In this document: piece after piece, positions 7,727 to 61,853 of the stretch
How the letters are laid out: each line of letters begins with the position of its first letter
Numbering within the stretch: position 1 is the first letter of the stretch
The notes under the pieces: generated by a model
Databases searched by the model: none
The model's input: the letters and a program-made list of their open reading frames with translations, nothing else
Told to the model about the DNA's origin: nothing
Source: Agelas oroides
Lineage: Eukaryota > Porifera > Demospongiae > Agelasida > Agelasidae
Direction: 5' to 3'
DNA length: 64,000 nt
Assembly (NCBI GenBank): GCA_949130485.1
Contig: OX422184.1
Span: 6,242,655 to 6,306,654 of the forward strand
Made by a program: the position numbers and the translations under genes

Positions 7727-8499
7727 GGCCGTCTGCAATCACTGGACTGGACTAGTGGACTGGACTGGTGGACTGTACTGGTGGACTGTACTGGTGGACT
7801 GACACTAAAAATCATTTTTATCCTTTCCAATGACACTCACTCACCTGTGGAGTTGTGTGGAAGCCCTGCAGCTTTGTTTCTAGCCTGCATACATGGTCCC
7901 AGAGCAAATAACTCACTAGGCCTACAGTATTTGTGATGGTCTTTGTACCCAGTGTGTAATGGCTTTCTCCTCTATGATGTAGTGTAGAAATTTCAACCCA
8001 ACTTCAGTTCCTAGGACTTCAGATGAGGTTTGGTAGTTTGGTAAATGTTTTAGTTGTCATTACACCATACTGTACATTGTAACACTTAAGTGTATATATA
8101 CAGTGAGCAATCTGATCGCATGCTCGGTGCAATACTTGTTCCTTCGTACAAGCATCATCTAGACTACCAAATGTCAGTTGTCCTGTGAGGACCAACAACA
8201 TAGGATGTTGCACCCTCAAATATTTGACTAACTGTTAGATCACTTTTGCTCCTCCCCTACCCTGTCAATTTTTGGAAATGAAGCCCAGGTTATGCAGTGG
8301 TTATCGCCATCAAAAATTTACTACTTTGGCATAAAGGTCTGTCCAAGAAGAAAGCTGTTTTGGGGGTAATATTATGCATCATGCAACCCTACAGGCAAGT
8401 GAGTCTGATTAGAAAGCATAAAAATGATTTTTAATGTCAGTCCACCAGTCCAGTCCACCAGTCCAGTCCACTAGTCCAGTCCAGTGATTGTAGACGGCC
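7727..8499. mobile_element. Foldback element, 773 bp, with minisatellite arms
   Basis: The terminal inverted arms are about 90-100 bp (7727 to about 7825, and about 8405 to 8499). They start GGCCGTCTRCAATCACTGG and contain tandem GGACTGGACTRGTGGACT units. The flanks carry a 5-bp direct repeat, CTACA (7722-7726 and 8500-8504). No transposase is seen, so it is non-autonomous. It inserted exactly where the 125-bp repeat meets the left end of the 17-kb transposon, so it came after that transposon. Confidence 0.8.
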
Positions 8500-8502
8500 C
8501 TA

Positions 8503-8515
8503 CACTGCAAAAAAA
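8503..8515 (+). repeat. Left terminal inverted repeat of the 17-kb transposon
   Basis: CACTGCAAAAAAA, preceded by TAGCTA in the reconstructed pre-foldback sequence. It matches the right end over 12 bases with one mismatch. CACTR ends followed by an A-run are typical of animal EnSpm/CACTA elements. Confidence 0.8.
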
Positions 8516-8715
8516 GTTGTGTTAAAATAACATTAAAATTGATGTTAAATCAATTGAAACTGAGGTAACCCTATGTAAATTGAAATTAACTGCATTTAAT
8601 TTGATGTTATTCTAACCACAGTGAAGAAAGTCATATTAAGTTAAATATTTGGTTACTTATAACCCATTCTGTGTTAGGTCATTGTAATGATATTTGATTG
8701 TTAGTATAAACATTT

Positions 8716-9300
8716 ATTGCTGGTACAAGTAGCTATTAGAAAAAGTTGTTTCAGCCAACCCTGAAAGTTAATGTAACTAAATAATATTTAGTTAAACTTA
8801 ACATTAGTAATGCCTCCATACAACCTATGCAAGTTGTTGTAACCTAACTTATTGCTGGTACAAGTAGCTATTAGAAAAAGTTGTTTCAGCCAACCCTGAA
8901 AGTTAATGTAACTAAATAATATTTAGTTAAACTTAACATTAGTAATGCCTCCATACAACCTATGCAAGTTGTTGTAACCTAACTTATTGCTGGTACAAGT
9001 AGCTATTAGAAAAAGTTGTTTCAGCCAACCCTGAAAGTTAATGTAACTAAATAATATTTAGTTAAACTTAACATTAGTAATGCCTCCATACAACCTATGC
9101 AAGTTGTTGTAACCTAACTTATTGCTAGTACAAGTAGCTATTAGGAAAAGTTGTTTCAGCTAACTCCAAAAGGTTAATGTAACTATGCAAATTGTTGTAA
9201 CCTAACTTGTTGCTAGTACAAGTAGCTATTAGGAAAAGTTGTTTCAGCCAACCAAAAAAAGTTAATATAACTAATAATGTTTAGTTAAACCTAACTTAAG
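8716..9300. repeat. Subterminal 135-bp tandem repeats of the transposon
   Basis: Units begin at about 8716, 8851, 8986 and 9121 (period 135), followed by a shortened unit from about 9208. The first copies are nearly identical. Each contains GTTGTAACCTAACTT and AACTAAATAATATTTAGTT, words also found singly in both subterminal zones. In plant En/Spm, subterminal repeats bind the accessory protein TNPA. A similar role here is inference. Confidence 0.85.
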
Positions 9301-9333
9301 TCCCCTATACAACCTATGCGAGTTGCTGTAACC

Positions 9334-9428
9334 TAGCCTCATTCCCAGGCCTTCCCCAGCTCCAGTTTTTGATCGCCTGCAGTATGCGATCAAAAACTGG
9401 AGCCGGGGAAGGCCTGGGAACGAGGCTA
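9334..9428. mobile_element. Minimal self-complementary element (TAGYCTCG family), 95 bp
   Basis: A nearly perfect palindrome running from TAGCCTCATTCCCAGGCC to GGCCTGGGAACGAGGCTA. The flanks GCTGTAACC (9325-9333) and GTTGTAACC (9429-9437) form a 9-bp target duplication with one mismatch. It would fold into a long hairpin. Confidence 0.8.
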
Positions 9429-9652
9429 GTTGTAACCTAACGCGTAAGTATTACCTAGTTGAAATAGGCGTGACAAAATTGTTTCAACAACATTGATGTA
9501 GTTCTTTTCATAGTAGACATGACCATGAAATAGGAAAACTATTTCAATAATAAATTCAAACCAACCAGAGCCAGTTCAAACGTACAGAACACAAATGTCA
9601 AGGTAAACTCAAATATTGGTAAGTTTCAGGTACAAAACTAGACCAAAAGTGA

Positions 9653-12600
9653 CTATTCTTCTTTAAACTTTTGTATATCAGTGGTCACAGATAAGTATGT
9701 TGCTGACTTTTGCCTTGTGCTAACAGAAGGCACTGGCTGTGAAAAAACAAATTCCTGTATAAACAGGCAAACCTCCTTAGCTTGCTTGCAATACTCTAAG
9801 TTGAGTACATAAAATAAAGCAAAGCAAAGCATAAGTGCCCTGGAAAAAAAAGGAGTGTCAGTCACTACACGCGAGTCCACATAAATGACATACGTGCTGG
9901 AATCATCACCCTTGAAGCCCGCAAACCTTGGGGCACTTCGTGGCGGACGGCGAGTAGCAACTTGTTCTGGTGTGTCGGTCATCTGCATGTAAGATAGGAA
10001 TAGCTAATAACTTCTGGGTGCTCTCCTGTACCAAAAAGAAAGCTTCTATAGGATGTCCAGGTCCGTTCCTAGCTGGGAAAGATGTTTACACTGCTTGCTT
10101 AACCCTATATACCCCCGACACGCATGCGCAAAAATCAATGTCGTAGCCACGAGACAAGATATTGAAAAAATGGTGATTTTGATTCATAGCGTTATATCTT
10201 GTAAACTAGCCAAGTTCACAGGCTGCTAGTTAGGCTTAGCTTAAACCTGCTTTACTCAGGAATTAGTCATACGAGTTGACAGTGAAGTTCGACTAAGCTA
10301 CAATGGAGGAAATGCCGGGGACTTGCTATCCATTGGAAATGACTAGAAAACCGTGGCCAAACTTCTAGCGAAGGTCATTGTTGTTTAGACAAACGGCTAG
10401 AAACAATTCTGTAGAACCAGTTGCACGTGGGATACAAGCTGTTCTGTGACAATGCTAAGTTCAACACGATCGGAAGGCAAACTTCGAATGCGATTTCCAG
10501 GGAAAGTCCCTATGGGACACCCTGGCTTATTATGCTGAGATCGACTTCCTGTGGCTTATAATTACTATATACTAACTCAAAAACACGCAGCTGTGGCAAT
10601 AAATCGCGGGAAGCTAACTCGGGCGCATACGGGCGCTATCTGGTTTAAAGTATCGGGTTTAAAGGTTGTAAAAATTCCGGGCACATACAGGCGCTATCGG
10701 GGTTAAAGGGTTAGTTATTAGTATTATATGAGTATGACATTAGTCGCTATACAATCACCATAGAGTTATGACTCAGGAGATGGGACTGCATGTGCATAAT
10801 ATATGATGGAAATGGATTAGTGTGTTAATGTCCTTTGTTCCCAAAGGTCACCGTTTAAAATATTACGAACTTTCCTTGCTAGTAACCATATTCGTTACAC
10901 ACACTGAAAATTAACCATGCGTATGACAGCAAAGCATAAGGTTCTCCATTGCTGCTGCTTTACGGACATGACTAAAATATGGACTGGATTGGAAAAACGG
11001 ATCAAAAAACGGATCATCTGAATTTTACAATTTCTAGCACTTCAGGTCACTGGAGAACTTCACTGAATTAGTGATTGTGGTTTGTTAAGTTAGCTGCTTC
11101 TACTAGCTAATAACATCAGCGCAGGCCACCAGAACATCGTCCATGACCACCTGCGTCCTAGACTCCCAGGCTGAGCACGCTTAGTCACACTAGCCACTTC
11201 CCATTCCGCAGAAAACGGGGTGCAGCTAGCAGCGACACAGTCTGATGAAGCAATCGAGAGTGTCAGCCCAGTGATAGCTATGGTAGTAGCTAGGTACTGC
11301 ACTGTGCATGTAGCAGTTTACTGCCACAAAATCCCCATAGAAGCATAGCTCGTGTATAGGCTGCTTGCTTACTTGCAGCCACTTACCGTAAATCCTAAAC
11401 CAGAACAAATCATATCAATATTTACAGAACACATGCAACTTGAACGCAACGTCAATGTCGACGATGGCGGTGGGGTGAGAGACTGTATGTGGTGTGAGCT
11501 ACTTCAAAGCTGGGCAAGGGCCTGGGAACGAGGCTAACTGTAGTTAAGGAATACTTCATAATGCTGTTTGTAAACTTTATCACAAAATGCATAATGCATT
11601 ATTGTAATACTAGTGAAATGCACATTCAAAGAGTGGAACTGCAGCCATCCTTCCTAGGAAGCTACTATGGCCGAAGCAGTAATTGTGATAAGCTAATAAG
11701 CTTCACACTCAAAGCATTAAGATAGCAAGAGACCCTCTACTACCATGCACATTCAAAGAGTGGAACTGCAGCCATTCTTCCTAGGAAGCTACTATGGCCG
11801 AAGCAGTAATTGTGATAAGCTAATAAGCTTCACACTCAAAGCATTAAGATAGCAAGAGACTCTCTACCACCTTCTGCAGCCTAGTCCTTACTTCAGACAG
11901 CTTGGAGAATGCTGTGTGGCTCGCCTACGTATCAATATATTGTGATTATTGAGACGCGCACGCGCATTTCTCCGATCAAGTAGAAATCGAACATTATTCC
12001 GTTGCGTAATTCGACCGCGTTACCGCGTTCGAAGCGCTGTAGCGCAGAACTTCCGTTAAGGGCGGGGTTCATACACGCAGCGAAGATGCATGAATACCTA
12101 GTCTATGTAGCGCTTATGAGCCCCGCCCTTAACGAAAGTTCTGTGCTACAGCGCTTTGAACGTGGTAATGCGGTCGAAATACGCAATGGAATAATGTTCG
12201 ATTTCTACCACGATTTCTACCCAGGACTGCAAGAAGAAAGCTGTTTGTCGTCTCGGTAAGGTCGTGTCACCGTACTCCGGGAACCCAATATATTGTTACT
12301 ATGGAGTCCACAATAATCGATATGCTCAATATCGTCCAGCACAAATTTGGTGTGGGAGAACTGCTTCCAGATTTCACATAAGGCAGGAGTACTACCTTGT
12401 AAATTGGCTGAGTCTATCGGAGCTGTAAGCAGCAAGCGAGAAAAACAGCACCATTTCAAGATGCTGGTATAAGCTACAACATAGAGAATGGTTTCAAACA
12501 GGCTTATCTAGCAGTGATCAGCTATTAAGTCCAGCCTAGTTACACTCTATCCAGGGTTTCATACAGGATTTTGAGTTTGGGGGGGGAAACAGGATGGTAG

Positions 12601-15600
12601 AGGGATGATAGTAGTGTGTGAAAGCACGCTCACACACGCGTAAAGCGTGCGTGCCTACTAGGGGGGTCTGGGGACATGCCTCCCCCCCCCCTAGGAAAAT
12701 TTTGAAATTAGATCCTCTCAGATTGCTTCTGACGCAATCTGGGACAAACTTTCCAAACAACATTTTGATGACACATACTTATGTCCAGTAACATGTAAAA
12801 TTGAATAGCTAATATTGATGGCACCACAATAATAACCATACTCAATTTCAAGATTTCTGGGGGGTGGGGGGGGGGGGGGGGGGGGAATTCCAGCCCCCCC
12901 TCCCCCCCCCTGTATGAAACCCTGCTATCTATGCAAATCAGGCCGCTGGCAAGTGTACATGTACTTTTCAAGATTGCAATAGAATCATACGCTGCCCCAT
13001 GTTCAACTTCCAGCTCATACATAGTGTGTTTGCAATTAAAGTGTGCAAAGTTAGCTTCTGGTGGGTGTAATGAATATGGTTAATAATAGCCATGTAAGTC
13101 TCTAATAAACCGCTACCTTTAGAGAAAACTTGCAAAATGCACTTATGTACTCTTTTTATGTACTCAATGTGCATATACATGTACGCATCATTGGTTGGTA
13201 AAGGGTAACCACAAATGCTTTGGGAAAGAGGCTACAAATGCTGCCCCATACTAGTTAAACATGTACCTTGCACTCTTCATAGATGTACGCCAGTGCACTG
13301 GCTGCACCCTTCTTTGAGAGGACTTTACACAGGAAGTACAATCCAGCTTTCTCATCCTTTTCAGGGTCACCTGTACAAGTGGTAGTAAAGTAATCCAAAA
13401 GTACCATGCATAACAAAAATGAGTAAATATCATGCTAATCAAAGCCCAAAGGCACATGGTGCAAGTGCTATTCATTGTTAGTAAGAGTAGTTTCGCTCAC
13501 GAGAGTGCATTGGAGTGTTACTTCTAATATGCACACAGTAATACGCAACAGAGTAATGTTTGATTTCTACCCAGGACTGCCATGCCACATATTATATTGC
13601 ATCCTTTTACTTGCATCTTGGTGTAATAATAATAATTGGAATAATAGTCAATTTCTACATGGGACTACCACGTATAGGTGCACTAAGCATATACCTCACG
13701 AACGCTATATACAAACAGTGCTTACAGTGAGACAGATGTTATTAATAATGTCCAGGATTGCCATACAAAATTCTGGAATATCCTCAAGTTGCCCCTTTAT
13801 ATACACAGATGATTCTTATTTTAACCTTAACCCTTTGGACACGATAGGCGTATAAATACACCCACTTTTTACTTCCTGTGAGCACGAACGGTGTATATAT
13901 GTCTACGTTACGCTTGAGTGTCTACCACGCTAAGTATCAAAGCCTAGCGAGTCTTCGGGGTAAATCCCTACCTACTTGTAGTAATAAGTATAGGCCACAC
14001 TTTTCCACCTACATCACTACTCAGGAAAAGCAGGAAGGGTACTAGTTTGTGAGTGATCGTGAATTTGGGCAAGGGCTGCCAAACACGAAGGTTTCTCTTG
14101 AACACAGGAAGCAAACGGCCTTCAGTTTTCACTTAAGGCAGGAGTGTTATCTTCAAATAACTTTGAAATTGGCTGAGTCTGTCAGAGCTGTAAGTAGCAA
14201 ATGAAAAAATGGGCACAGCTTTGAATTGCTGGTAAGCTAGAAGTATAGCTGCAGAAAATGGCTTCAAACAAGTAGCTTACCAAGCAGTGATTAGCTATTA
14301 AGATAAACTAGTCCAGCCTAGTTACGCACATCTACACAAATCAGGCCAAGCACTGCCCTAAGCAACGCTTGTCACTCTGACCTCCAAACTAGACTGATAA
14401 TGAACAGCTTCTGGTTGGTAAACGGTGACATATAAACTACTTCAGCGTCCAAAGGGTTAACACAAAGGAGGCAATCTTTAACATGTGCAACAAGGATACC
14501 TTCAAACATCTTCTGGGCACTGTCATAGATGTTCTCATGCAGGTGGCTGCCATACTCCAGCAGAGTGGGGACCCAAATTTCTTTCCAGCTCTGAAGAGCT
14601 TGCTTAAATGAATCCCGCTTGGACAAAACAAGGTCCATTTCCTGCTCAATCTGCAGGGATAGCAGAATCAATGCTAGAGTGATTGTAGAACACCTACCCC
14701 ACACACACTGTATAGAGAGACTGCTTCTCATAAGTCTAAAAATGAAATGAGTGGAAGGGTACTGGTGCATACATAATCTGTCACCATGTGATTACGTGTC
14801 ACTAAACTGAAGAACAGCAAGGAGATAAACTCTAGGCTTAAAATGTATCGCAGCTAATGTTTCCATACTACTGTACTGTATGACATATTTCATTAGCAGT
14901 TCACACTTATAAGCACCCATTTCAGTAGTCTCGGAGCCAGACCCTCGCATGCGGAGGAGGGTCTGGTAAACTTGCATACATAAACTCTTTATGGGATATG
15001 GCCTCCTTACAGGCTTCCTATGCAATAATTGAAGGTGTTGATTGGGTGCAAATATGCATGTGCTCAATTAGCTACTGTAGACTGTCGCTGCCAGTGAAGA
15101 TACTAGTAACGAAGCGACCGTTTGATAGTACCTTGGAGAGCGCCACTGCTACTTTTGGCAGGCAATTTAAACAGCGAATAGCAGGGCAGCCCAGAACTGT
15201 GGTGTTGGCTAACGAAATTTACGTGACTTGTGTCCATTGCCGTGAATGCCTCAGCTACATCAAGCACGAGCGCCTCCAGAGGGCTTACAATAACTACGAT
15301 GGACTTACGTCTGCCTCCGTGACTTCAATGCGCCAAAATTTGCCGATGAACGTAGCTAGCCTATACCATAGCAGAGGGACTTTCACAGTTCCACTGCTTG
15401 GGTAGTGAAACCGAAGACTTCTATCCCTTTCATAACAGCTTTCCAGCTGCTCAAGATTCGCTGGAGAATATCTAAGCTTGTTGAACGATGGTCGCTTCGA
15501 TTCTTGTATCAATCGCTGGTTCGTCATTCAAATTCGCCATGTTGTTATTACATGAACACATGCCTTCATGGGTAGAAATGTAATTACACAGTCATCAACC

Positions 15601-18600
15601 AATCAGATTCATCCCGCCGAAATTCCGCGGACTTCAAATCTGTATGTATGCAAGTTTACCAGACCCTCCTCCTCCTCCGCGTGCGAGGGTCTGGTTCCGA
15701 GACTACCATTTCAGCTGCTAATTTTGAAAATAGGCTTATCATTTCAAGTCTACCTGTATAGGTATACTTACAACATAGCCTTTTGTGAGTTCAGGATACT
15801 CTTTGAGCAGCTCTGAAGCTGTGACGGACTCAGGATCTGCCAGTACCGACTCCCTTCGAGTCAAAAATGTTTCCCTGGCAAGTGCTAGCACCACCTCTTT
15901 TTTGGGTCTGGCTTCCATCAACTCTTTGTGAAGCTTCTGCACGTTTCTAGCAGCAGCCACATCATCATCATCTGTCTCCCTCAGTGGGGGATAGCGTATC
16001 AGAAGAGCATCGTGTTTGGGACGTCCTCGTTTCGCCTTGGGTGTCTCCAATTCCCCAGAGAGATGTCTCTTCTTACTGCCACTGTTGACGTTGTGTATGC
16101 GCTCTAGGATTTTTTTCTCCCAAGAGCCCTGGAATAAAGGTGGGAGGATGACCACCATTAGCTAAGTGAAAATGAAAAACATAAATAAGTAACTTACATA
16201 GCCAGACACATTTTGTCCCACATCCTTCAGGAAAGGATACTTTTTAACAAGCAGTCGTGCAGCCTGCTCAATGAAAGTTTTGTTCGGCTTTTGTTGAAAG
16301 GAAAACATTGAGACCACCAGGTCCCTAACAATTTCGTTCCGAATCTTTGGAGTAAGTTGCATCTTCCTTTCCTCATCAGTTGGTTGTTGAATACACGCCA
16401 TGATTGAGGGTCTCCATGTATCAGGAATCATAAATTTATGATGCAAGGCAGATGCCGAGGACGCAACTGAGACTCCATCATCAGATTCAGATGGTGAAAA
16501 TGGTTTTGCAGGGGGTGAGAAGGGACTAACTGGACTGAGTGGGGATGATGGTGGTTGAAAATGAGCATTTTCTTGCAGGTTGTCAGGCAGTACAGCATCA
16601 GATGAAGTAAGCTGAACATGAAGAGCAAATAACACCAAATGAAATTGCCAAGAATAAGAAATCAAGTCACAAGAAGAGGAAGGGCTGCACAACTTGCCCA
16701 GACTCACTCTCTTGGAGACTACTGTATACTTAGATATCATCCACTGTAATTAATATGTAAGGGTCAAGGGACAGTCAATGGCTCAAAATTTCTCACCATA
16801 TCAGCTATTAGCTATCATTGTACCCATCTGTGAGATTCATACACCTGATCAGGCTTTCACAAGTTACAGAGCCTTTTGATTTGTATGGCCTCCACAGTAC
16901 ATGTACCAGTGAATATACTTATTGTGGGGCAAACCTGAGCAGGCATGTTTGTTGCAGAGTAGCACAGCTTCAAGAAGTCATATAAAGGAAAGGCACTCAA
17001 GGGCTACACATGAACAACAAGTTAGGTAGCTTTAGTCTAGCCTCATTCCCAGGCTCTCCCCTCGCCCCGCCGAAAAATAAAAACGGAGGGGGAGAGCCTG
17101 GTATCGATTCACACGTGCCTCCCCATTTGTTCAGCATTTTCAGGAGGGTGATGATCTCTCAAGTTGGTTTATACGGCTCAAACTTTCTACCCAGAAGAGG
17201 TTAGAAGTTAGTAATTAGTAGGTAGCAATTAGTACTACATGAATGGTGTAATCATACAGACTGCCATAGCAGCCAAAGTGATTCACAAGGACAGCCCTTG
17301 TTTGTATGGAACGAAACTCGCTCAGTGGATACTGCAGGCCTGCCAACCTAGCTACTCCAAAAATCTTGAGACTGGGTTGTCTGGTGGGTGTGGCTAAGAC
17401 AGGCCTAACATGCATAGTCCATGCTTGAGGAAACTTAGAGGAAGCCGACATGCATGCTAAATAGCAATGTAGCTATTCAACTTGCACACTCAGACCTGAA
17501 GCTACTGCCCTCTACAATAGGTCAGCTGCCTCTCCTAATTGTCTCTCATAACCATCTGCTGGTTGCACGAATGAAGCAGAGCAGAGGAATGTCGCATAAG
17601 GTCATGCACATGCACATGCAGTCTATAACACTGCAAAATAACCAAATAGATACAAAATTACAGACAGACAGACGAATATACATATGTACCCAAACTTTTC
17701 CACAGACTACATTAGTGTGGTGCTTGCTCAGGCTCTCCCCAACTATAGCTGTCCCACCTAGAGCTCACCAGGCAGTATCCACTGAGTGAGTTTGAAGTTG
17801 AATAAGTTCAAGCAAGCAAGCAAACAAGCATGCACATGTGCGCAATGCAGTCCTACTAGGGTAAGGCTTGCTCAGGCTTGCCAAAAGGCTGGTTTCCTGG
17901 AACCTCTGAACTTCTTTTACTTCCTGTCATTAACACTTAGAGTGTGAAGCACCAATATATGCATGGGCTGTAATCATGTATTGCAATGCGCCTACATGTA
18001 TATATTGGCATGGCTACCTGTTAGACTTCAGGGGTAAAACTCTATTATCACTTCGCTTCCTAATGAGACTCAGGGGTAAGTACCTACCTATTGAGTTTAA
18101 GACACACTTTTACACTTACATCACCATTCACAAAAGGCCAGAAAGGGTGGTACTATAGTTTGGACTGATCATGAGGGCTGCCAAACACGAAGCTTTCTCT
18201 CAAACACAGGCAGCAAACGGTTTCCAGTTTTCGCTTGGGAGTTCTACCTTCCACAGTCTACACGCAGACCTCGAAATTTATTTTACCCGCGTAACCACGT
18301 GATGTCATCAAATCTGGGATGAATAAGTAGTGAGCTCAACGCACGGTCAACTGTCAAGCATATATCTCTCAGTAGCAAATCTGGATCAAGATGATACTTA
18401 CACAGCAGTGTAAGACCTGTCTATTGTAGGTTCATAATGCCGTCATGCCTGCTGGCTGCTTCATGTGGTGGTAGAGATCAAGCTAAAATTTGTGCCATCT
18501 TCGATTTGTGGTACAATTAAATAGGGGCAAAGTGGAGCTACAAAACAAGCTTCACAGCGCGCATACATTACAGTCGGCAGCATAACATACTCGAGCTAGA

Positions 18601-20933
18601 AGCCAAAAGCTCTAGTTCTACAGGAAATATGAAGTGTACAGTATTGAAAAAAAATGGCCTCATGAGGCTCAAACATACACACGGTATAGAATACGCTACT
18701 GAAATGTAACGAACGCTACAAAGCCTTCCTGGCTCTTGGCTATAACCTACAAAAAGTGCCATCTCCATAGCTATTGTACTCTCCGAGATAGAGCGCTTTT
18801 GTAAGTGACCTTCCAACTGTGAGCGATTTTCAATTTTGGTACAAATAGGGGCAGACCGTCGAAGGACTCCGTAAATTTCTGGAAAGTCCCGGGAAGTTCG
18901 CGGGACTCGCAACGCAACTGAATAACAGCTGCATTGTAACTGTTGCAATAATAGCTTACACAAGCTGTACTTTTAGTTATCTGCTTGTAATTGCTAATGT
19001 GATTTTGTAGGTAGAATAATCTGTACTGGAAGGCCTAGGTCTGCGTGTAGACTGTCAAATAACTTGGAAACTGGATGAGTTCATTGAAGTTGTAAGTATC
19101 AAGTGGGAAAATTGGCACTGTTTCATATTTCAAGTAATATTATCGTAGAGAATGGCTTGAAATGGTTACTTGCTATGTAGATAAACTAGTGCAGCCTAGG
19201 TATACACTATGTGTGCAAATCAAGCCACTAGCACTGCCCAGAAGCTTGCTAGCACATTTGTCACTCAAATTAATATCTGCTACTAGGCGTTAGCTTAATA
19301 ATTTCATTCTGCAGAGGGACATACCTGCAAATAAATTAATGATTACACAGACTGACATAGGATTTTGCAGAATCTCACATGAGCACACAGCATTGGTTAA
19401 TCAAATGACTGTGAACAAGGTGCTACTTCCTGGATGCACATAATTACAATGTATATTTGCTGTGAACAAGGTGCAACTTCCTGCATGCACATAATTACAA
19501 TGTATTTGCTGTGAACAAGGTGCTACTTCCTGCATGCACATAACTAGTTGATGATTCATCATCATGGGGCGAGCCTGAGCAAGCAGCACATGGCTGATGT
19601 TCTATTTCGTCATGGCACACAGCAGGATTGTCACTGTCTGTTTGCGGTTATAAGCCAAACTTGATAATGCATAATAGCTAGTCCTCACCAAAGTAGTCTT
19701 GTTCCCAGACCGCATTTTTCGCACCCGCCGCAAAATTAGTCTGGGCACAAGACTACACCAAAGGTAGGTATCACAAATTGCATGCAGTGACATCTCTCTA
19801 GCCAAGGCAGCTACTATGGCTACTTGTGAATAGACTAAGCTTTACACTGAATCATGACCTGAATCTCTGGCGTTATGAGTGCCATTTATGCACAGTCTTT
19901 ACCTGAAGCAATCTGAACCCAGCGTGTATAATTTGTATGGTCTGTGAGCAGCTTGCAGTTGATGGTCGGTCCGTAGCTGTCATGACAAACAAGAAGTAAG
20001 TTGCCATGTGTGCTTCAACTTGAGCCGTCTTTGTTCTGGTTGCCGACCCTGCACTCTGGCAGCCCTGCATTGCCCTTCACCTACTGAGGCTAACCTACTA
20101 AGTGCACGAGGACGTTCAATTTTCAGGAAATATTTAAGCGCGCTTTTAAAATTTACCGTATATGGCCGCAAGCAAACCAACAGACATATACGCGCGTTTT
20201 GCAATGCAGTCACGCTAGTGTGGGGCTCGCTCAGGCTCGCCCCAATTTACAGTACATAACCATAGCCTTAACAGTGCAGCAGTTGACTTCCATATAAGGA
20301 ATGCAAGACAGTTTATCCGGTTTTATTCTGTAAAACCTGTACCTGCCCAGCTAGCTGGCTCTCTGGAAAAGCAGACAGCTTCCCACCCACATCCCCTCCC
20401 CCCAAAAATAAAAATTAAGCAATGAACACAACTGGAAAAAAGGGTTTAATTGGTTATATTTGATAGTGTCTTTTGCCCAACACAGAACCTTGACTCTTCC
20501 ATAATTTCTCCAGAGCACATTCTTAGCTGTCCAGCAGTCAGTCTTTCCATACTGTTCACTTCAAATTATCATCCCTAGACTGAAACTGTAACATAGAAAA
20601 GTCTGGCAAACTTACTTTGCGTTGAAGTTTCAAGATCTTCTTCACATGACCGAGCTTTGAGATGAGGCCTTTCAACTCGCTTTCTGTCAACTCAAGGAAA
20701 GATTCGGCATCAATATCTTCTCCTTAAGAAAGAGAAGTCAGAGAGTAATTTAACTAGCTCACCATACGTTTGCATTAATTAAAGCACTGTCAGAACTTAC
20801 TTTCAAGGACGTCGCAAACTTCTCGAGGTATTCCACTGTTAATCAAAAATGCAGACAGGTCGGTGGAATCCATCGTAGGGTCGAAAGGTACGGATGAGGA
20901 TTCCCCAACAACGTCGGCCAAAGGCTGCTGCAT
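9653..20933 (-). CDS. SAMD3-like protein with SAM domain and AT-hook, seven exons
   Basis: Exons on the minus strand: 20933-20801, 20722-20616, 16611-16198, 16128-15772, 14650-14500, 13370-13267 and 9982-9653. All introns are GT-AG, phases match, and the total is 1596 nt (531 residues). Residues about 22-80 form a SAM domain (INSGIPREVCDVLE, then LTESELKGLISKLG), usually a self-association module. A Ser/Pro-rich linker follows (about 95-130). Then comes the block I recognise from animal SAMD3-like proteins: WRPSIMACIQ, RNEIVRDLVVSMFSF, LLVKKYPFLKDVGQNVSGY. Residues 251-256 (KRGRPK) are an AT-hook core in a basic stretch. The last exon has a hydrophobic segment (ALMLCFALFYVLNLEY) in the position usual for the family. 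The biochemical role is unknown. It lies head to head with the transposase inside the same transposon, so an accessory transposition role like TNPA is my inference. The donors of exons 5 and 6 are weak, and an extra exon in the 4-kb second intron cannot be excluded. Confidence 0.75.
10099..10714. mobile_element. Possible TTAA-type MITE
   Basis: The left end is TTAACCCTATATACCCCCG. The inverted right end is CTAACCCTTTAACCCCGATA. The interior is non-coding and has two GGGCGCATAC-like words near 10620-10690. It resembles the TTAA-flanked elements elsewhere in the window, but the right flank is TTAG, so the call is weak. It lies in the last intron of the SAMD3-like gene. Confidence 0.35.
11621..11874 (+). 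repeat. 127-bp tandem duplication
   Basis: 11621-11747 and 11748-11874 are near-identical. The unit includes CCTAGGAAGCTACTATGG and AAGCTAATAAGCTT. It lies in the last intron of the SAMD3-like gene. No function is seen. Confidence 0.85.
11980..12208. mobile_element. Foldback MITE with 93-bp arms
   Basis: Arms 11980-12072 and 12116-12208 are inverted copies with few mismatches, separated by 43 bp. The outer end reads GTAGAAATCGAACATTATTC. A fragment of the same end recurs at about 13535-13575 (minus orientation), so it is a dispersed family. The open stretch across it reflects the inverted repeat and is not a gene. Confidence 0.75.
12552..12924. mobile_element. hAT-like MITE with poly-G/poly-C interior
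   Basis: The inverted ends CAGGGTTTCATACAGG are perfect for 16 bases and are flanked by CTATC on both sides (12547-12551, 12925-12929). The interior has long G and C runs near 12575, 12680 and 12858-12910. CAGGG ends suggest the hAT superfamily. The expected 8-bp duplication is not clean; only 5 bp match. Confidence 0.65.
13831..14456. mobile_element. piggyBac-like MITE, 626 bp
   Basis: TTAA lies on both sides (13827-13830 and 14457-14460), with inverted ends CCCTTTGGACRC. TTAA targets and CCC ends are typical of piggyBac-type elements. Related sequence lies at 12340-12545, 18140-19290 (interrupted) and 48577-49137 (inverted). It sits in the intron just downstream of the 14650-14500 exon; its right end is about 40 bp from that exon's donor site. 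Confidence 0.75.
14926..15705. mobile_element. Mutator-like non-autonomous element, 780 bp (TAGYCTCG family)
   Basis: The terminal inverted repeats are about 58 bp (14926-14983 and 15644-15705), start TAGTCTCGG and contain an inner palindrome (CCAGACCCTCGC...AGGGTCTGG). A perfect 9-bp target duplication, CCATTTCAG, flanks it (14917-14925, 15706-15714). Nine-bp duplications and long ends suggest Mutator-like elements. A plus-strand open frame of 135 codons (14998-15405) matches nothing I know, and it may be captured sequence. The element lies in an intron of the SAMD3-like gene. Confidence 0.85.
17195..17795. repeat. Old degenerate copy of the 39.4-kb foldback family
   Basis: 17195-17340 and 17745-17795 match the two arms of the foldback at 39431-39870, with shared words such as GAACGAAACTCGCTCAGTGG and GGCAGTATCCACTGAGTGAG. 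They are much more diverged. Between them lie AT-rich unique sequence and a CAAGCAAGCAAAC run. A lone left end of the TAGYCTCG family lies just before, at 17043. Confidence 0.55.
18140..19290. repeat. Interrupted copy of the 13.8-kb MITE family
   Basis: The flanks match internal parts of 13831-14456 (for example AGGGCTGCCAAACACGAAG at 18175, and AACTAGTGCAGCCTAG at 19185). About 800 bp of unrelated sequence (about 18260-19035) sits in between and may be a nested insertion. It lies in the second intron of the SAMD3-like gene. Confidence 0.5.
19411..19545. repeat. Short tandem repeat, about 47 bp x 3
   Basis: Three units of GTGAACAAGGTGCTACTTCC followed by TGCATGCACATAATTACAATG. They are non-coding and lie in the second intron of the SAMD3-like gene. 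Confidence 0.7.
19694..19755. mobile_element. Tiny self-complementary element (TAGYCTCG family), 62 bp
   Basis: It reads TAGTCTTGTTCCCAGAC to GTCTGGGCACAAGACTA and is flanked by an exact 8-bp duplication, CACCAAAG (19686-19693, 19756-19763). It is the smallest member of the family in this window. Confidence 0.75.
20123..20248 (-). repeat. Dispersed repeat family A, copy 2 (inverted)
   Basis: An inverted match to 3341-3471, with TTTACCGTA, GCAATGCAGTCACGCTAGTG and GGGGCTCGCTCAGGCTCGCC in the reverse order. It lies in intron 2 of the SAMD3-like gene, about 370 bp from exon 2. Confidence 0.65.
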
Positions 20934-21410
20934 TTTCCGTTCACTCGAGTGCGGTGGGGCTGCAACTGTATAAAGTCCTCGGCGCTCGCAGAACTCCGAC
21001 CTGCAAACGTACGGCTAGCAAGTTCAAACTCGCATCTTGACCGCGTGCTTTGACACGTGATCAGCAGTGTCGCCGGCGCGCGCGCGCAGTTTGGCCGCGA
21101 TCTGACGGGCCGGCCGCAGAGCCGCGATCTGATCGTGTAGTCCCGTGCCCAGACCCCGCCCTCTTGCAGGTTGGGGTCTGGGCACGAGACTATGGTACTA
21201 TATTATCCATGCATGGACCGCGTACCGACGTAGATAGAACCATAGATAGTATATACCTTCGGAACGGGATTGGAAACATCTCATGTGATTCCATACTGCC
21301 GTATCGTAACGGTTACGTGGGCTCCGTGTTGCGGTTGTTGTTACTAGCGGCGAAGAAGACGACGAGTCAGACGGCGGATTTTGAATGGTTCCGAAGGTCT
21401 ATGATGGAAC
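20934..21410. promoter_or_regulatory. Shared 477-bp spacer between the two transposon genes
   Basis: The SAMD3-like gene (minus) and the transposase gene (plus) start from opposite sides of this spacer, which suggests a bidirectional promoter. It has a CpG-rich core (about 21070-21135, with a CGCGCGCGC run) and a hairpin element at 21138-21192. No TATA box is evident. The regulatory role is inferred from gene layout. Confidence 0.55.
21138..21192. repeat. Hairpin of the TAGYCTCG family in the shared promoter
   Basis: TAGTCCCGTGCCCAGACCCC pairs with GGGGTCTGGGCACGAGACTA across a short loop (55 bp in all). No clear target duplication is seen. It is probably a minimal non-autonomous element that landed between the two start sites. 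Confidence 0.65.
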
Positions 21411-24400
21411 ATGGCGATGTCGAATGCGATTCAGTGTCCTTTGTGTGAGCAGTTTGCTCCGACTATCTCGCTTTACATCAGTCATCTCCGCCTTGTTCAT
21501 TCGAAAGACAGATCGTTTAGCGTCGTGTGTGGAATCGGCGGATGTAAGGAAGTGTTTGGCGCTTTTTCGGGGTTGAACACCCATGTTTACCGGCATCACA
21601 GAGCTGCTCTTGGACTTGAACATCCATTGGTTGGTACAACTTCTTCTGCGCTAGCAGCATTTGAACCTGCCAATTGTGATTTTGATGCCCTTAATGTTGG
21701 GAGTGGACCAAACACTGATTTAGACTGGAATGAGTCTAGTGTGGCAGGGCAACCTTGCTCAAAGTCCTATCCACCTGGATTTTCTGCTGCCAGGTTTATT
21801 CTTCAGTTGAGAGATGGCCGACAAGTGACTCAAGTAGCTCTTGCAGAAATCAAGGAGGGATGTAACAAACTGTGCAACGATGCAGTTAAAGAGCTCCAGA
21901 CAGATATAAAGGCCAAATTGGAGAGTGCTGGAATTGACTGTGACTCAGTTTCTGGTTTAAGTGACAGTCTGTGCAAGGAAGTTGACTTGTTTGAGAATGT
22001 TGGTTCGAATTACTTGTTTGAGAAATTCTGCATCGACCACTTTGGATATTTGGTAAGTATTAATTCTTATGACATTGTGCCTATAAGTAACAGAACCCAA
22101 GTTCTTACCTGTTTGTTTCGTTTATCAGTTACACTGATGATTGTTACATGTTTTGTTTGATACATCGTTCACTTGTGAAGAGATGATAATCTATGTACTC
22201 CTCCAGATTTATACAACTGCATGCTGTACAGCATTTGTGCTACACTATCTCATATCACAATTAGGGCATAATATAGCTGCTCTGTCCACCAATGTAATTC
22301 TGGAGATGACTTATGTAAAGCGAGATAGTTGGAGCAAACTGTTCACACAAAGGACACTGAATCGCATTCGACATCGTCCAGGTTGTGATATCATATATAG
22401 TTGCTCTAATTAAATTCACTGCATGCTGTCACAAAATTTTTGCTGTGTTACCACACCACTGCTATCATTTGCTGTAGAGACACCAACTTTCCTGGATGAC
22501 AACAGACAGGTGTTCATCTCTGGAGCAGAGTGGACTAGAGACCCTTGATTACAAATGGATTGATTAAGAATTACATTGGTGGACAGAGCAGCTATATTAA
22601 TGAAAAGAAGCTTGTGCTATGATACTAGTTATGTTGTGTGTTAAAACTAGACACCTATTTTGTTCACCCTGTTAGAGAGAAATTATGAAATAGAGTGACG
22701 ATGATGATGTGTTATGTGTGTAACTGGCTTTTGACACAGTGGAGAAGTTGTGACACAAGCATTCACTTTGAAGTGATGTATATAGGGCCAGATTCAGACT
22801 TACAGTGTTAAGTATAGCCGTATGCGCCTATACATAAACCAGGGTATGTGTTGATCAGGCATGCCACAAGTGTAAGTATTGAAAGAGGTTGGAGATGAGG
22901 CTAAGGTTGCTTGGCAACTGTGATTAGGCCTTGGTGTTGAAAGATTATCCTGTCATGCTATGCTCCAATGATCCTAACTGCTTTGATGCCTCCAAATTAT
23001 GGTCACATTATGTTTCTATTCATGTAAACATGGAAGACTATTAGCCAAGTTAGCCCTCTATAACTTGACTGCTCACACCTTCTCCACATTCTATTTATAT
23101 TCACTCACAGGAACCTGAAGAGATGGCATTTGGGGAAATGTACTATGGCTACAGGTTTACAGGGGCAAAACGCCAGAAGGTTACTTGTACCGACCACTTC
23201 TATTACATTTCATTACTTCAAACACTACAGACTCTACTTAAGCAGGAAGACATTTTGTCTGAGGTTCTTAATCCTCACCAAAGGCAAGATAACATTTTAG
23301 GTGATTATTGTGATGGTAAGCAATTTCGAACACACCCACTGTTTAGTTGTGACCCCCATGCGTTACAAATCATTGCGTATTACGATGAGCTAGAAGTTGC
23401 AAACCCACTTGGCTCATACGTCAAAGTGCATAAGCTTGGTGTACTGTCATTTTTTCTTGGCAATATCCGCCCCCAGTTTCGTTCTTCTCTGAAAGCTTAC
23501 AATGTGTTGGCTATCGCAAAGCACCAAGATGTGGTGACTTACGGCATTAACAAGTTGTTAACTCCTTTTGTGGAAGAGTTGAAAACTTTGTATTTGGAAG
23601 GTGTCAGCATTTCTGTGAATGCAAACAAGAAAACTCTTCACGGTGCATTACTTGCCTTCTTGGCCGACAATCTTGCAGCTCACTTTGTCGGTGGCTTTAA
23701 GGGAAGCATGTCCTTTGCCTTGCGCATTTGTCGAAGTTGCATGGTAACCCCTGAAACCATGCAAGAAGCAAGCTATTACCAGGAATCCAACTGTCAGTTG
23801 AGAGATCCAGAGACCCATTTTGAACAGTGCTCTAAGTTAACTGGCCCTCTCAAGGACCATTATTCCACAAATTATGGGATAAATCATTTATCTGTTTTGG
23901 AAGAAGTCCCAGGATTTTCTGTTGTCACATCAATGCCTCATGACATCATGCACGACCTTTTTGAAGGTATTGTTCCTCTTGAACTAAAGCTCTTGCTTTC
24001 ACATTGCATCTCTTGTAAGTATTTCACACTTCAAGAACTCAACGTTCGGATATCAGCTTTTGACTTTCCTGAAAATATGCCAACAAGTATTTCAGACATT
24101 TCTCATATAAGGCAGTCAGCTTCACAAATGATGACATTGACAAGGTTCTTGCCATTAATTATTGGGGATAAAATTCCATTGGAAGATGATCATTGGGTCT
24201 CATTCTTGTTGCTTCTAAAAATTTGTGGGCTCTCATTGTCCCCAAGTTTCACACCTGATAATGTGGCATATCTTTCTGTTCTAATTGAAGAAAAGCTCTC
24301 TCTCTTCCATCAGCTTCATCCTGGTGTACGGTTAATTCCAAAGCAACATTATACAGTTCATTATCCCTCTCAGATAGAAAACTTTGGACCACTACTGCAC

Positions 24401-24979
24401 TCATGGACAATGCGACAGGAATCAAAGTTGAGCTTCATAAAACGTGTGTCACGCCAAAGTAACTTCAAAAATGTCTGTAAAACTGCTGCGAGGAAACACC
24501 AGTTTTGGTTCTGTTCCAAACTAGTTTCACTGCCACATTTGCTATTACCGAATCTAGAAATAAGCCCTAAAGGTTATACAATATGTTTGGAGAATGAGTC
24601 GGATTATGTTCAAGTTGAATTCCTAAGAATCATTCCCTCCTTGACTCCAGTAAGCAATGTAAGGCATCCTAAATGGGTGAAGCTACAAAGTTCTCACTTT
24701 ACGGTGGGTGTATTTGTCCATATTGAGCATGACCCAATTCACCCTATTTTTGGAAAGGTATTTGACATTGCTGTACTCGATGAAACAATGATCTTCTCTG
24801 TTAAAACTTATATTGGATCATGCTTCTGTACACATTACAACAGTTTTGTAATTAAAGCAAAGGGTGAAGTTAGAGTTGTGGACGTACATACATTGGCTGA
24901 CCATAGGCCACTACATGCACGACAAAACTTTGATGGAATTGACAAAGATCTGTACATATCACTACCTTACATTAGCTAA
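21411..24979 (+). CDS. CACTA-type (Tnp2-like, CMC superfamily) transposase with N-terminal C2H2 fingers
   Basis: Two exons, 21411-22052 (donor GTAAGT) and 23111-24979 (acceptor CTCACAG), join in phase 0 to give 836 residues. Residues 9-30 (C9, C12, H25, H30) and 40-63 (C40, C45, H58, H62) look like C2H2 zinc fingers. The body has the CMC signatures: C-x2-C at 421-424 (CRSC), D-x2-H at 492-495 (DIMH, in the context DIMHDLFEGIVP) and a glutamate at about 651 in WTMRQESKLSFIKR. Candidate first acidic residues are D306 (YYDELEVANPLGS) and D400. No stop or frameshift interrupts the frame, so the enzyme may be active. It is expected to cut and rejoin the element ends in the nucleus. The exact catalytic triad is inferred from family knowledge. 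The second Met (ATG at 21417) is an alternative start. Confidence 0.85.
22270..22598. mobile_element. Inverted-repeat insert in the transposase intron carrying an antisense copy of exon 1
   Basis: Perfect 32-bp inverted arms (22270-22301 and 22567-22598, starting AATATAGCTGCTCTGTCC) bound a 329-bp segment. Directly inside the left arm, 22302 to about 22379 is the reverse complement of exon 1 bases 21413-21489 with about three substitutions. The insert therefore captured the start of the transposase coding region in antisense. A nascent pre-mRNA could pair exon 1 with this intron segment. Confidence 0.8.
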
Positions 24980-25289
24980 ACACCATGCACCCTGTCTGTT
25001 ATTGAATGTTTTTGTTTCTGTACTTGTACAGAGTGAATTATTGAAATGTTTTTGGATTACAAAACTTCTCAATAATGAAGTATATAGGCTTTTGGGATAC
25101 ATCACTCATCTCCTCATAGCTTTGCTGACATCACATTCCATTGCATGGGTCAAAGTCCTGCAGGTGAGATAGAATAGATAAAACTCTAGCCATGTTCCTA
25201 GGCCTAATTCCTTAAAGTGCACAAAATATTGTATATATAAGTGATCAAAAACTGCATGGACAGTTGGAAAACTTGGGAATGAGGCTATA

Positions 25290-25786
25290 ATGATAAAAGG
25301 ATAATTTCTAGCCCAAAGTAGCAGAAATAAATGAGTTAAAATGACCGGAGACTAGAATTGATTTCCACTATATTGGGGTCTTTAGTCAATCAAAGTGTAA
25401 CTTTACCTACAACCATAATTGGTTACTTCAAACTCCAGTCTTATAGAACAACCATTTCTTATTTGGTTCAACCAACCTTTAGTTAAAACTATCAACTCTG
25501 TCAGAATTTATCTACACTGGTTAATTCAAATCATACATAATTAGAAAATTGACTACTATTTATTGGTTTTATTAACATGGTTATATTATGTTATTTTCAA
25601 ATACAGCTGTTAACGGTAGAAACTACAACGTCTTTGTAGGTTCAAATAATATTTAGTTAAAATAGCAATTTTAGGCAAAATTACTCGCCTTGATTAATTC
25701 AAAACAGCTGTATGTAACATCAACATCATAATATTCAGGTAAGATTCACCATAAAATGTTGAATTAACTGGTCATTTTTTGTAGTG
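25290..25786. repeat. Right subterminal zone and terminus of the 17-kb transposon
   Basis: AT-rich, with many variants of GGTTAATTCAAA and TTTAGTTAAA. It contains AAATAATATTTAGTTAAA, shared with the left zone, and ends TTTTTTGTAGTG at 25775-25786, directly before TAGCTACATTAG of the interrupted 125-bp repeat. Confidence 0.75.
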
Positions 25787-28727: not shown

Positions 28728-28864
28728 TAGTGTGAACTAACGTTGCATATCAGTTTTCTCTCGGTTCTCTCGTTGTTTGTCGTATCAAATCCGTCGTTTT
28801 CCGAACACGTGTTCCACAATTCTCACCCGACCCGTCTTCATCGTTTCTCGTTGTCGCTCCCACC

Positions 28865-29943
28865 ATGTCTACCGCTTCGGGTGTCAGAAAGAGAAGGGGC
28901 ACCGTTCACAGCTCCATAACTAGACTACTCAACCGCCTAGCTGCCTTAGAAGGCAAAGCAGCTGAACCCTCGACCTTTGACCTTGCGCAGGACATGGCCA
29001 AAAGACTTGGTGAACTTGACCAAGAATTCAGGAAGCATCATGACCAGCTCCTTGACCTCATCGATGAGACAGATGAGAGTGGCCTGGAGAGTGCACAGAA
29101 TGAACTGGACGCCCATGATGACATAATTGACGATGCCAACATGCGTATCCGGCAACTCCTGTCAATCAGTTCATCTTCTGCTAATTCACCCAAACGCAAG
29201 GTTCTCTCTCGTCAACAGTCACAGTTGGAGAAGGCTGTACAGTATAGAGGTCATCAGAGTCCTCCAGATTCATGGTCAGAAGGATAGCAGACAGTTCCTT
29301 CAGATCAGTTTTGTGGGCTTGAAGCCGCCCCTCGTAATGGCGAAAGATGCAAATGTCTGAAGTGCTGGTCAGATGTATGACAGCTTCACGAATAGCATTC
29401 CCGAGGTAGAAGTTTCCTACTGATCTGGATGCTCCTTTCCCGTAGAAACTGAGGTAATAGTTAATACAAAGTATATTATTTATTTAATGTTTACTTGGAA
29501 TTGCAGTTGAGGGTTGAAAAGCCAAATAGCAGTTGAAAGTTGGAATCACAGTTGAGCGTCAAAGTGCACTTGAGTCACTGATTTTTGAGTGTGACCTGAT
29601 GATCAAGAGGTTGGTTGTGCCTGATCCCCCAACGTCCGCTACTCCCCCTACAGCCTCAGACAGCAAGGGTGTCAAATTGCCCAAGCTGGAGACACCCACT
29701 TTTGATGGGAAACTAACCAACTGGATATCATTTTGGCAGCAGTTCGATGTTGCCATACACAGTCGGAGTGCCCTGTCTGATGTGGAGAAGCTTGCATACT
29801 TGCGCAACTCTCTCAAGGATGGGTCTGCCAAGGGGGTCATTGAAGGACTGTCAACGTCTGGCGAATTCTACGCTGAGGCCATCGAGACCCTAAAGGCACG
29901 ATACGATCGACTGCGGCTCATCCACCAGTCACTGTACGAATGA
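28865..29943 (+). pseudogene. BEL/Pao gag region, frames broken
   Basis: 28865-29287 is an N-terminal gag piece (140 codons, acidic coiled-coil-like, starting MSTASGVRKRRGTVHS). It ends in a stop, and about 245 bp of poorly coding DNA follows. 29533-29943 then resumes in another frame with a DUF1759-like stretch (PKLETPTFDGKLTNWISFW). A further frame change near 29930-29940 leads into the long pol frame. Gag should form the particle shell and bind RNA. As it stands it would be made only in pieces. Confidence 0.8.
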
Positions 29944-32900: not shown

Positions 32901-34487
32901 TGGCTTGCTCAATCTCAAGTTCCTGAAGCAGTATTAGTTCCAGAGGAGGAGAGGGAAGTCTCTCTTGTAGCGCTAGTACAATCAGTGGAGCCACTCATTC
33001 CATTTGATCGATTCTCCACTTTTTCTCACTTGAAGAGAGTTACTGCTTGGATCATGCGATTCATCAAGAATTGTCGTACAAAGGCAAGCTCTGAGTCACA
33101 CTTGAGTGTTCTGGAGTTACAGAAAGCAGAGATCTACTGGTTGGTGCTCGCCCAAAGACAACATTTCATGAAAGAGATAGCATACATCAAGAAAGGCCGT
33201 CAACTCCACAAATCAAGTCCCCTGATCCCTCTTCACCCCTTCCTAGATGCAGAGGATCTCATCCGTGTTGGTGGACGAGAACAGAATTCCAACAGAGCGT
33301 ATTCCACTCAACACCCCATCATTTTGTATGGTGGGCACCCCATCACTCGTCTCATTATTTTCTCTGAGCATCTCAGACTGCTTCACGCAGGTCCTACTCT
33401 CCTCTCATGATCATTGAACCGTCGCTTCCACATCATAGGTGGGCGCAAGATCATCCGGTCTGTTACCCATGCCTGTGTGACGTGTCGTCGCCATGCTGCC
33501 AAGCCACAAAGTCAGATGATGGGACAAGTCCCCACTGAACGTGTCACGCCAGATCTCGTCTTTGACAGAGTTGGTGTGGACTATGCCGGACCACTGCAGC
33601 TGAAGCTAGGGTCCACGCGTAAGCCAGTCATTGTCAAGTCATATGTGTGCGTGTTTGTTTCATTGTCTGTTCGAGCAGTGCATTTGGAACTTGTATCTGA
33701 TCTGAGCACAGACGCATTTATCGCATGCCTGCGACGATTCATTTCCCGGCGAGGAAAGCCTACCCTTATTTGGAGCGATCATGGCACAAACTTTGTTGGT
33801 GCTACTAGTGAGATCAAGGAACTGGTGAAGTTTCTTGAATCTCAGAAAGCACAAGGAGAAATCTCCTCATTTTGTTCTGTCCAAAATATACAATGGCGAT
33901 TCATCCCAGAGCATGCACCACATTTTGGTGGGTTATGGGAGGCTGCTGTGAAAAGCTTCAAGTCACATCTATGACGAGTTGTCGGCAATGTAAAGCTGAC
34001 GTTCGAAGAACTGACAACGGTGCTATCACAAATTGAGGCTTGCCTCAACAGCCGGCCTCTTGTCGCTCTCCCTCTTGCTGACGATGGAGTAGAGGCCCTG
34101 ACGCCTGGTCACTTCCTTGTAGGAAGACCGCTGGAAGCACTGCCAGATCCAGCACTTGCATATCGGTCCATCTCGATCCTCTCCCGTTGGCACTTGTGTC
34201 AAGCACTCGTTCGTCACCTCTGGCAACGCTGGTCAGCTGACTATTTGGACACCTTCAAGCGTGTTTCTAAGTGGCACAATCCATCGAGGAACTTGCATGT
34301 TGGTGACATTGTCATTCTCCGAGAAGACAACGTGATTCCAGCAAAGTGGCCTCTGGCTAGAGTGGTGACAGCTCACACCGGAAATGATGGACTGGTACGT
34401 GTTGTTTCCGTCAAAACCTCCACAGGCACGTATCGAAGACCTGTGACGAAGGTTGTGTTGCTACCTACTGAACCCTCATCTGCGTAA
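29940..34487 (+). pseudogene. BEL/Pao gag-pol polyprotein with two in-frame stops
   Basis: 29940-33410 is open for 1156 codons, then TGA (33408-33410). The same frame continues to a second TGA (33972-33974) and resumes to 34487. In order it encodes the gag C-terminus, Cys/His zinc knuckles (about residues 125-190), a protease site LLDSASS (about 240), a reverse transcriptase with YVDD (about 655), RNase H (FSDASEQAYAA about 834, AWTDSTIVLCW about 907), then after the first stop a Cys-rich integrase head, GVDYAGP, WSDHGTNF and GLWEAAVK as the acidic core blocks, and a DUF5641-like end. Protease has DSA where DTG/DSG is usual. The stops fall in the integrase, so protease, RT and RNase H may still be translated. 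Confidence 0.88.
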
Positions 34488-61752: not shown

Positions 61753-61853
61753 CTGGATCGGTGGATGATGACATGCGCTTCTTGTTCAGCACATACCATC
61801 CAATGGCAGTAACCACTACAATTATTAGTGTACCAAGAAGGCCGATACTCAAG
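61753..61853 (-). CDS. Single exon coding a transmembrane helix
   Basis: A 101-bp exon with a strong acceptor (TTCCTCTTCTCTTTCAG) and donor (GTGAGT) on the minus strand. It reads LSIGLLGTLIIVVVTAIGWY followed by VLNKKRMSSSTDP: a hydrophobic helix and then a basic stop-transfer segment, as in a type I membrane receptor. Flanking exons lie outside what I could join, so the protein is unknown. Confidence 0.6.

What the first reader, a model, noticed from the sequence alone, without database searches (positions are those of the whole stretch)
8503..25786. A 17.3-kb CACTA-type transposon that carries a SAM-domain gene head to head with its transposase
Seen: matched ends (CACTGCAAAAAAA and CACTACAAAAAA inverted); flanks that rejoin exactly into a unit of an independent 125-bp repeat with TAGCTA shared; an intact two-exon transposase; and a complete seven-exon SAMD3-like gene between the same ends. 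Known: plant En/Spm has an accessory DNA-binding protein (TNPA) beside the transposase (TNPD). Inferred: the SAMD3-like protein is the accessory factor here, and the many SAMD3-like genes in marine animals may be transposon cargo and not host genes. I do not know of a description of this pairing, but I could not search.
Basis: partly seen in the sequence, partly recalled or inferred. Interest (0 to 1): 0.92.

Follow-up and report, generated by a model that had tools for sequence, protein, structure and literature searches.

The report
Sponge jumping gene with helper protein
A large animal "jumping gene" of the CACTA type carries, next to the enzyme that moves it, a second intact gene that looks like a DNA-binding, end-pairing helper protein, so some animal genes of this second kind may really be parts of jumping genes.

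Summary

The pairing is probably not an accident of this copy. In a protein search, 4 of 26 relatives of the SAM protein lie on contigs of exactly the length of contigs holding listed transposase relatives (0.046 coincidences expected). One of those contigs is only 6,799 bases.

I read the SAM protein as a TNPA-like accessory factor that binds and pairs the ends (inferred). Not tested: other copies in this genome (the genome search did not complete), the duplication length, and any link to human, fish or cnidarian SAMD3. One degenerate sponge locus showed no SAM gene.

The parts
8503..25786 (.). CACTA-type transposon, 17,284 bp
   Evidence: matched CACTR ends; exact rejoining of flanks into the 125-bp unit
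8503..8514 (+). left terminus CACTGCAAAAAA
25775..25786 (-). right terminus CACTACAAAAAA
8628..9289 (.). left subterminal repeats: 8 matches of AAATAATATTTAGTTAAA (3 or fewer mismatches), in a 135-bp tandem array (8714-9185) and beside it
   Evidence: AT fraction of 8503-9332 is 0.700
25644..25661 (+). right subterminal repeat, exact copy of AAATAATATTTAGTTAAA
   Evidence: AT fraction of 24980-25786 is 0.682, of 25300-25786 0.706
20801..20933 (-). SAM gene exon 1 (ATG at 20933)
20616..20722 (-). SAM gene exon 2 (rest of the SAM-like domain)
16198..16611 (-). SAM gene exon 3 (conserved helical domain)
15772..16128 (-). SAM gene exon 4 (RGRPK AT-hook-like motif)
14500..14650 (-). SAM gene exon 5
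   Evidence: splice sites and open frame only
13267..13370 (-). SAM gene exon 6
   Evidence: splice sites and open frame only
9653..9982 (-). SAM gene exon 7 with stop
   Evidence: splice site and open frame only
21411..22052 (+). transposase exon 1 (weak C2H2-like fingers)
23111..24979 (+). transposase exon 2 (RNase H-like D-D-E core with C(2)C and H(3)H; BAH-like C-terminal fold)
7727..8499 (.). 773-bp inverted-repeat element nested across the left boundary, flanked by CTACA
14925..15706 (.). 782-bp inverted-repeat element nested in SAM intron 4, flanked by CATTTCA (read by eye)

Best explanation
This is an autonomous, probably recently active, animal CACTA/EnSpm transposon with two genes of its own. 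The RAG1-like D-D-E transposase cuts at the CACTR ends (shown: signature and predicted fold; inferred: activity). The SAM protein is its accessory DNA-binding factor. Its AT-hook-like segment and helical domain bind the AT-rich subterminal repeats at both ends, and its SAM domain oligomerises to bring the ends together and recruit the transposase, the job that TNPA does for TNPD in plant En/Spm. The two divergent genes share the 477 bp between their start codons as a promoter region, which lets the element control both together. Shown: the anatomy, the conserved motifs, the shared subterminal motif and contigs of equal length. Inferred: binding, pairing, promoter sharing and control.
For: Both genes are intact between ends whose outer flanks rejoin exactly, although SAM intron 4 holds a nested element.

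Of 26 SAM-protein relatives, 4 lie on contigs of exactly the same length as contigs of listed transposase relatives (6,799; 2,272,181; 2,466,313; 6,431,975). 0.046 coincidences are expected over all 26, and 0.0033 for the 6,799-base contig.

Close copies: SAM exon 3 reaches 133/138 identical residues (P0126). P0145 has 34/43 identical residues in intron-derived sequence against 82/90 in the exon, and P0146 19/43 against 62/131, a decayed copy. This points to dispersed copies; the higher identity of the exon in P0145 is a weak hint of selection.

RGRP is present in 8 of the 9 sequences that cover the region.

All 9 matches of the subterminal motif in the window lie in the two ends, against 0.12 expected. 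The motif was picked because it is shared, so that figure flatters it; the control for shared 12-mers between the two ends gives 8 observed, 0.27 mean and 5 at most in 200 shuffles. Each end is more AT-rich than every stretch of equal length that does not touch the ends (0 of 1,198, 0 of 1,199).

Against: Only the 6.8-kb contig shows close linkage; the other three are megabase contigs, where both genes could lie far apart. The contigs themselves were not seen.

The one other locus I could read, L001, has a frameshifted relative of the transposase, with a hAT-like reading frame upstream on the other strand and no SAM gene detected. It is a weak test: only about 0.9 kb lies upstream of its transposase, too short to reach SAM exon 3 at the spacing seen in the window.

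Distances of the two proteins over the five paired contigs correlate only weakly: r = 0.53, reached by 8 of 120 permutations on common columns; with unequal columns r = 0.04, 57 of 120.

Shared words of 9 bases between the ends are within the shuffle range (20 and 18 against maxima of 24), and part of the longer shared words belong to another repeat.

Confidence: 0.6

Rival explanations
1. Passenger: this CACTA copy captured a host SAM gene, and the gene has no role in transposition.
For: CACTA elements can carry host gene fragments (recalled). The relative on L001 shows no SAM gene beside its transposase, though little upstream sequence is held. Three of the four shared contigs are megabases long.
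Against: The gene is complete with introns. SAM relatives occur with transposase relatives on contigs of equal length, including one of 6.8 kb. Close copies of exon 3, one of them with intron-derived sequence, exist.
Confidence: 0.17
2. Two neighbours, not one element: a host or other-element SAM gene happens to lie between two unrelated CACTA ends, or the true element is smaller.
For: CACTR ends with one mismatch are not rare (9 of 100 shuffles reach 4 matches). The duplication is not a clear 3 bp.
Against: The outer flanks rejoin exactly into a repeat unit. The same 18-bp motif sits only near these two ends.
Confidence: 0.06
3. Regulator or anti-silencing factor: the SAM protein belongs to the element but acts on chromatin or transcription (SAM polymer plus AT-hook), in the way that fungal EnSpm elements carry a TET/JBP enzyme, and does not pair the ends.
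For: SAM domains and AT-hooks are common in chromatin proteins (recalled). The transposase has a BAH-like C-terminal fold. Fungal EnSpm elements carrying TET/JBP are described in PMC12730594 (passages seen). Plant TNPA itself also acts on the methylated promoter (PMC1636069 passages).
Against: The subterminal repeats at both ends fit an end-binding role directly.
Confidence: 0.17

Closest known systems
Plant En/Spm (CACTA): TNPD transposase plus TNPA
   Same: CACT-type ends, Transposase_21-type D-D-E enzyme, a second element-borne protein proposed to bind DNA; subterminal repeats near both ends (the plant ones recalled).
   Different: TNPA and TNPD come from one alternatively spliced unit (PMC1636069 passages); here there are two divergent genes. 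The second protein is a SAM/AT-hook-like protein; it was not compared with TNPA by sequence.
SmTRC1 of Schistosoma mansoni and other animal and fungal CACTA elements (PMC1636069)
   Same: Animal CACTA with a Transposase_21-type enzyme and further element-borne proteins; the authors propose a TNPA-like role for SmTRC-PrA (passages).
   Different: The passages seen say SmTRC-PrA/PrB have no detectable similarity to sequences of other animal or fungal elements; no SAM protein is mentioned in them.
Fungal EnSpm elements with a TET/JBP dioxygenase (PMC12730594)
   Same: EnSpm elements carrying an extra gene that may help the element persist (passages).
   Different: Different extra protein, fungi; 'SAM domain' does not occur in its main text.
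RAG1 and Transib transposases
   Different: Sequence identity 8-15% in the rows; different ends; a BAH-like C-terminal part.

Membership tests
CACTA/EnSpm (CMC) transposons | termini 5'-CACTA/G... in inverted orientation | tested here: met
   the only two exact CACTRCAAAAAA matches of the window, in inverted orientation
CACTA/EnSpm (CMC) transposons | D-D-E transposase with C(2)C and H(3-4)H between second D and E (definition: PMC12730594 passages) | tested here: met
   D106, D200, C221/C224, H427/H431, E451 identical in 48 of 48
CACTA/EnSpm (CMC) transposons | Transposase_21 (Tnp2) homology | tested here: met
   window protein is below Pfam's cut-off (15.3-15.9 against 28.6 bits), but 44 of 48 family members match at E 0.01 or better, best 8.5e-8
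CACTA/EnSpm (CMC) transposons | 2-5 bp (in EnSpm 3 bp) target-site duplication (PMC12730594 passages) | tested here: inconclusive
   palindromic TAGCTA leaves 6, 4, 2 or 0 bp (and my reading); 3 bp does not fit
CACTA/EnSpm (CMC) transposons | subterminal repeats at both ends (recalled) | tested here: met
   9 of 9 motif matches in the window lie in the two ends, 8 left and 1 right
TNPA-like accessory proteins (function) | binds subterminal repeats and is needed for excision | not testable with these tools
   needs bench work; AT-hook-like motif and motif placement are only suggestive
SAM-domain proteins | sterile alpha motif domain | tested here: inconclusive
   SAM_1 E 6.8e-4, 20.4 bits, cut-off 23; Amphimedon relative 22.6 bits
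SAMD3 | homology to vertebrate SAMD3 along its length | not tested
   no vertebrate SAMD3 sequence was fetched; the profile search listed 26 proteins, one with an organism name (Amphimedon queenslandica), and scored only 7,991 candidates that share words
RAG1/Transib-type fold | RAG1-like catalytic fold | tested here: met

The most novel reading that the evidence does not exclude
SAM/AT-hook proteins are the standard second gene of a large animal lineage of CACTA transposons, and the multicopy 'SAMD3-like' genes annotated in marine animals, possibly vertebrate SAMD3 itself, are active or domesticated copies of this transposon accessory protein.
Probability: 0.3. Interest if true: 0.85.

Novelty: new variant of a known kind. 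Interest (0 to 1): 0.68.

Why it matters
If right, an animal gene family annotated as host genes is really part of a transposon. Animal CACTA elements would then have a definable second protein, comparable to TNPA but made from a SAM domain and an AT-hook. That would give a testable two-component system whose transposase shares the RAG1 fold. It would also change how SAMD3-like gene counts in marine genomes are read.

Tried and rejected
Other copies in the same genome: the genome search 'own' was asked 15 times with the same request and never answered. Copy number, empty site and duplication length therefore stay open.

Other collections: three scans of viral contigs and one of genome contigs with the SAM exon-3 alignment confirmed no relative; the tool says records of the window's own genome may be left out. 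A second genome-contig scan, with the transposase alignment, confirmed 1 of 27 candidate stretches, L001, a sponge contig inside a symbiont bin; no SAM gene was detected in it by tblastn or profile.

Co-divergence of the two proteins: the first version with unequal columns showed nothing; the version on common columns is weak.

My first gene model had six exons and 425 aa. It read through a donor site in exon 6. The seventh exon was found partly because its sequence resembled what I recall of fish SAMD3-like C-termini; that resemblance is recall, not a test. The homologue, PDB and first Pfam searches with the SAM protein used the six-exon model; only one search used the seven-exon one.

Literature: ten searches of the held library. 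Papers listed of papers held: 0 of 0; 4 of 4; 15 of 24; 1 of 1; 10 of 10; 15 of 52; 1 of 1; 12 of 51; 0 of 0; 12 of 129. No listed title or abstract opening describes a SAM protein in a CACTA element or a BAH domain in a CACTA transposase. Only listings were seen, except passages of PMC1636069 and PMC12730594 (12 of 17 places). Most subscription papers, and Repbase reports, are not in this library.
Full report
WHAT IS THERE. The element runs from 8503 to 25786. The two exact CACTRCAAAAAA matches of the window are its ends, although matches with up to one mismatch are not rare in shuffles (9 of 100 reach the observed 4). The strongest boundary evidence is outside: the left flank and the right flank together regenerate a unit of a 125-bp tandem repeat that lies on both sides. 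To see this one must set aside a 773-bp inverted-repeat element at 7727-8499, which lies across the left boundary between two copies of CTACA. The shared TAGCTA is a palindrome, so a duplication of 6, 4, 2 or 0 bp fits equally; the 3 bp typical of EnSpm does not.

THE SAM GENE. On the minus strand, seven exons from 20933 to 9653 give 531 aa, with GT-AG splice sites and an open frame through all six joins. The N-terminus matches SAM_1 at E 6.8e-4, slightly under Pfam's cut-off. Exon 3 encodes a helical domain that is predicted with high confidence in the Amphimedon relative but has no clear known fold. Exon 4 carries KRGRPK, which I recognise from memory as an AT-hook core; RGRP is kept in 8 of the 9 sequences that cover it (read). 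Exons 5 to 7 rest on splice sites and open frame only.

ARE THEY A PAIR? The window alone cannot say. The protein database gives no neighbourhoods, but it gives the length of the longest contig of each hit. Four of 26 SAM relatives share that length exactly with one of the 120 listed transposase relatives (of 235): 6,799, 2,272,181, 2,466,313 and 6,431,975. The expected number of coincidences is 0.046 for all 26, and 0.0033 for the 6,799-base contig. Fourteen of the 26 SAM contigs are at least 6 kb long, and about half of the transposase hits were listed, so four is a lower bound. The three megabase contigs prove little about distance; the 6.8-kb contig does, as both genes must lie within it. 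Against this, the only other locus I could read, L001 from a sponge symbiont bin, holds a frameshifted transposase relative, a hAT dimerisation domain on the other strand upstream (E 2.4e-13) and no detectable SAM gene. With only about 0.9 kb upstream it is a weak test. Distances of the two proteins across the five pairs agree weakly (r 0.53, 8 of 120 permutations; r 0.04, 57 of 120, with unequal columns).

COPIES. The SAM gene is not unique: P0126 shares 133 of 138 residues of exon 3, P0127 110 of 119 of exon 4, and P0145 82 of 90 of exon 3 plus 34 of 43 in intron-derived sequence; P0146 looks decayed, 62 of 131 and 19 of 43. The clusters of the closest transposase (P0004) and of P0127 hold 33 and 31 member sequences. 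This is what dispersed copies would give, but I could not tell copies in one genome from repeated assemblies.

ENDS. The motif AAATAATATTTAGTTAAA occurs 9 times in the window with 3 or fewer mismatches (0.12 expected), and all 9 are in the element's ends: 8 within 790 bp of the left end and one exact copy about 140 bp inside the right end. I chose the motif because the ends share it, and part of the left-hand number comes from a tandem array. The control for shared words is 8 shared 12-mers against 0.27 on average and at most 5 in 200 shuffles; for 9-mers there is no excess beyond the shuffle range. The ends are 70% (left) and 68% (right) AT, above all 1,198 and 1,199 stretches of equal length that do not touch them.

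HOW IT MOST LIKELY WORKS. The transposase cuts; the SAM protein binds the AT-rich subterminal repeats through its AT-hook and helical domain and links the ends through SAM-SAM contacts. This is the division of labour that I take from TNPD and TNPA in En/Spm (PMC1636069 passages, and recall). The anatomy is shown; the action is inferred. A chromatin or anti-silencing role is the main rival.

WHAT IS NEW. Animal CACTA elements are known (PMC1636069). I found no description of a SAM protein in one in ten searches of the held library (not every hit was listed), which lacks most subscription papers and Repbase reports. I therefore rate it a new variant of a known kind. The organism is probably a sponge: the one SAM relative with an organism name is from Amphimedon queenslandica and L001 is from a sponge sample; the window's species was not given.

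Noticed in passing
window 24551-24958: The C-terminal part of the CACTA transposase (residues 495-630 of the ORF starting at 23069) is predicted to have a BAH fold (DNMT1 BAH1, BAHCC1, ZMET2). A transposase with a histone-reader-like domain seems unusual; one paper search for it held no paper.
   Followed up: partly
window 28736-34487: ORFs of 183, 1177, 187 and 170 aa in a row on the plus strand; the 1177-aa one matches the Pao retrotransposon peptidase (E 2.5e-53) and reverse transcriptase, the 187-aa one an integrase core: a BEL/Pao-type retroelement.
   Followed up: partly
window 14925-15706: A 782-bp inverted-repeat element in SAM intron 4, flanked by CATTTCA, contains short reading frames reminiscent of a RecQ-type helicase (recalled, not searched).
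   Followed up: partly
window 22302-22384: An inverted copy of about the first 80 bases of transposase exon 1 (94% identical) lies in the transposase intron.
   Followed up: no
window 61839-62003: Weak match (40% over 55 aa, E 6.6e-6) to the transposase exon 1 region, perhaps a remnant of another CACTA element.
   Followed up: no
L001 149-3390: A contig filed in a Cycloclasticus symbiont bin (LWTN01000176.1) holds a frameshifted animal CACTA transposase and a hAT dimerisation domain, so it is probably host sponge DNA in a bacterial bin.
   Followed up: partly
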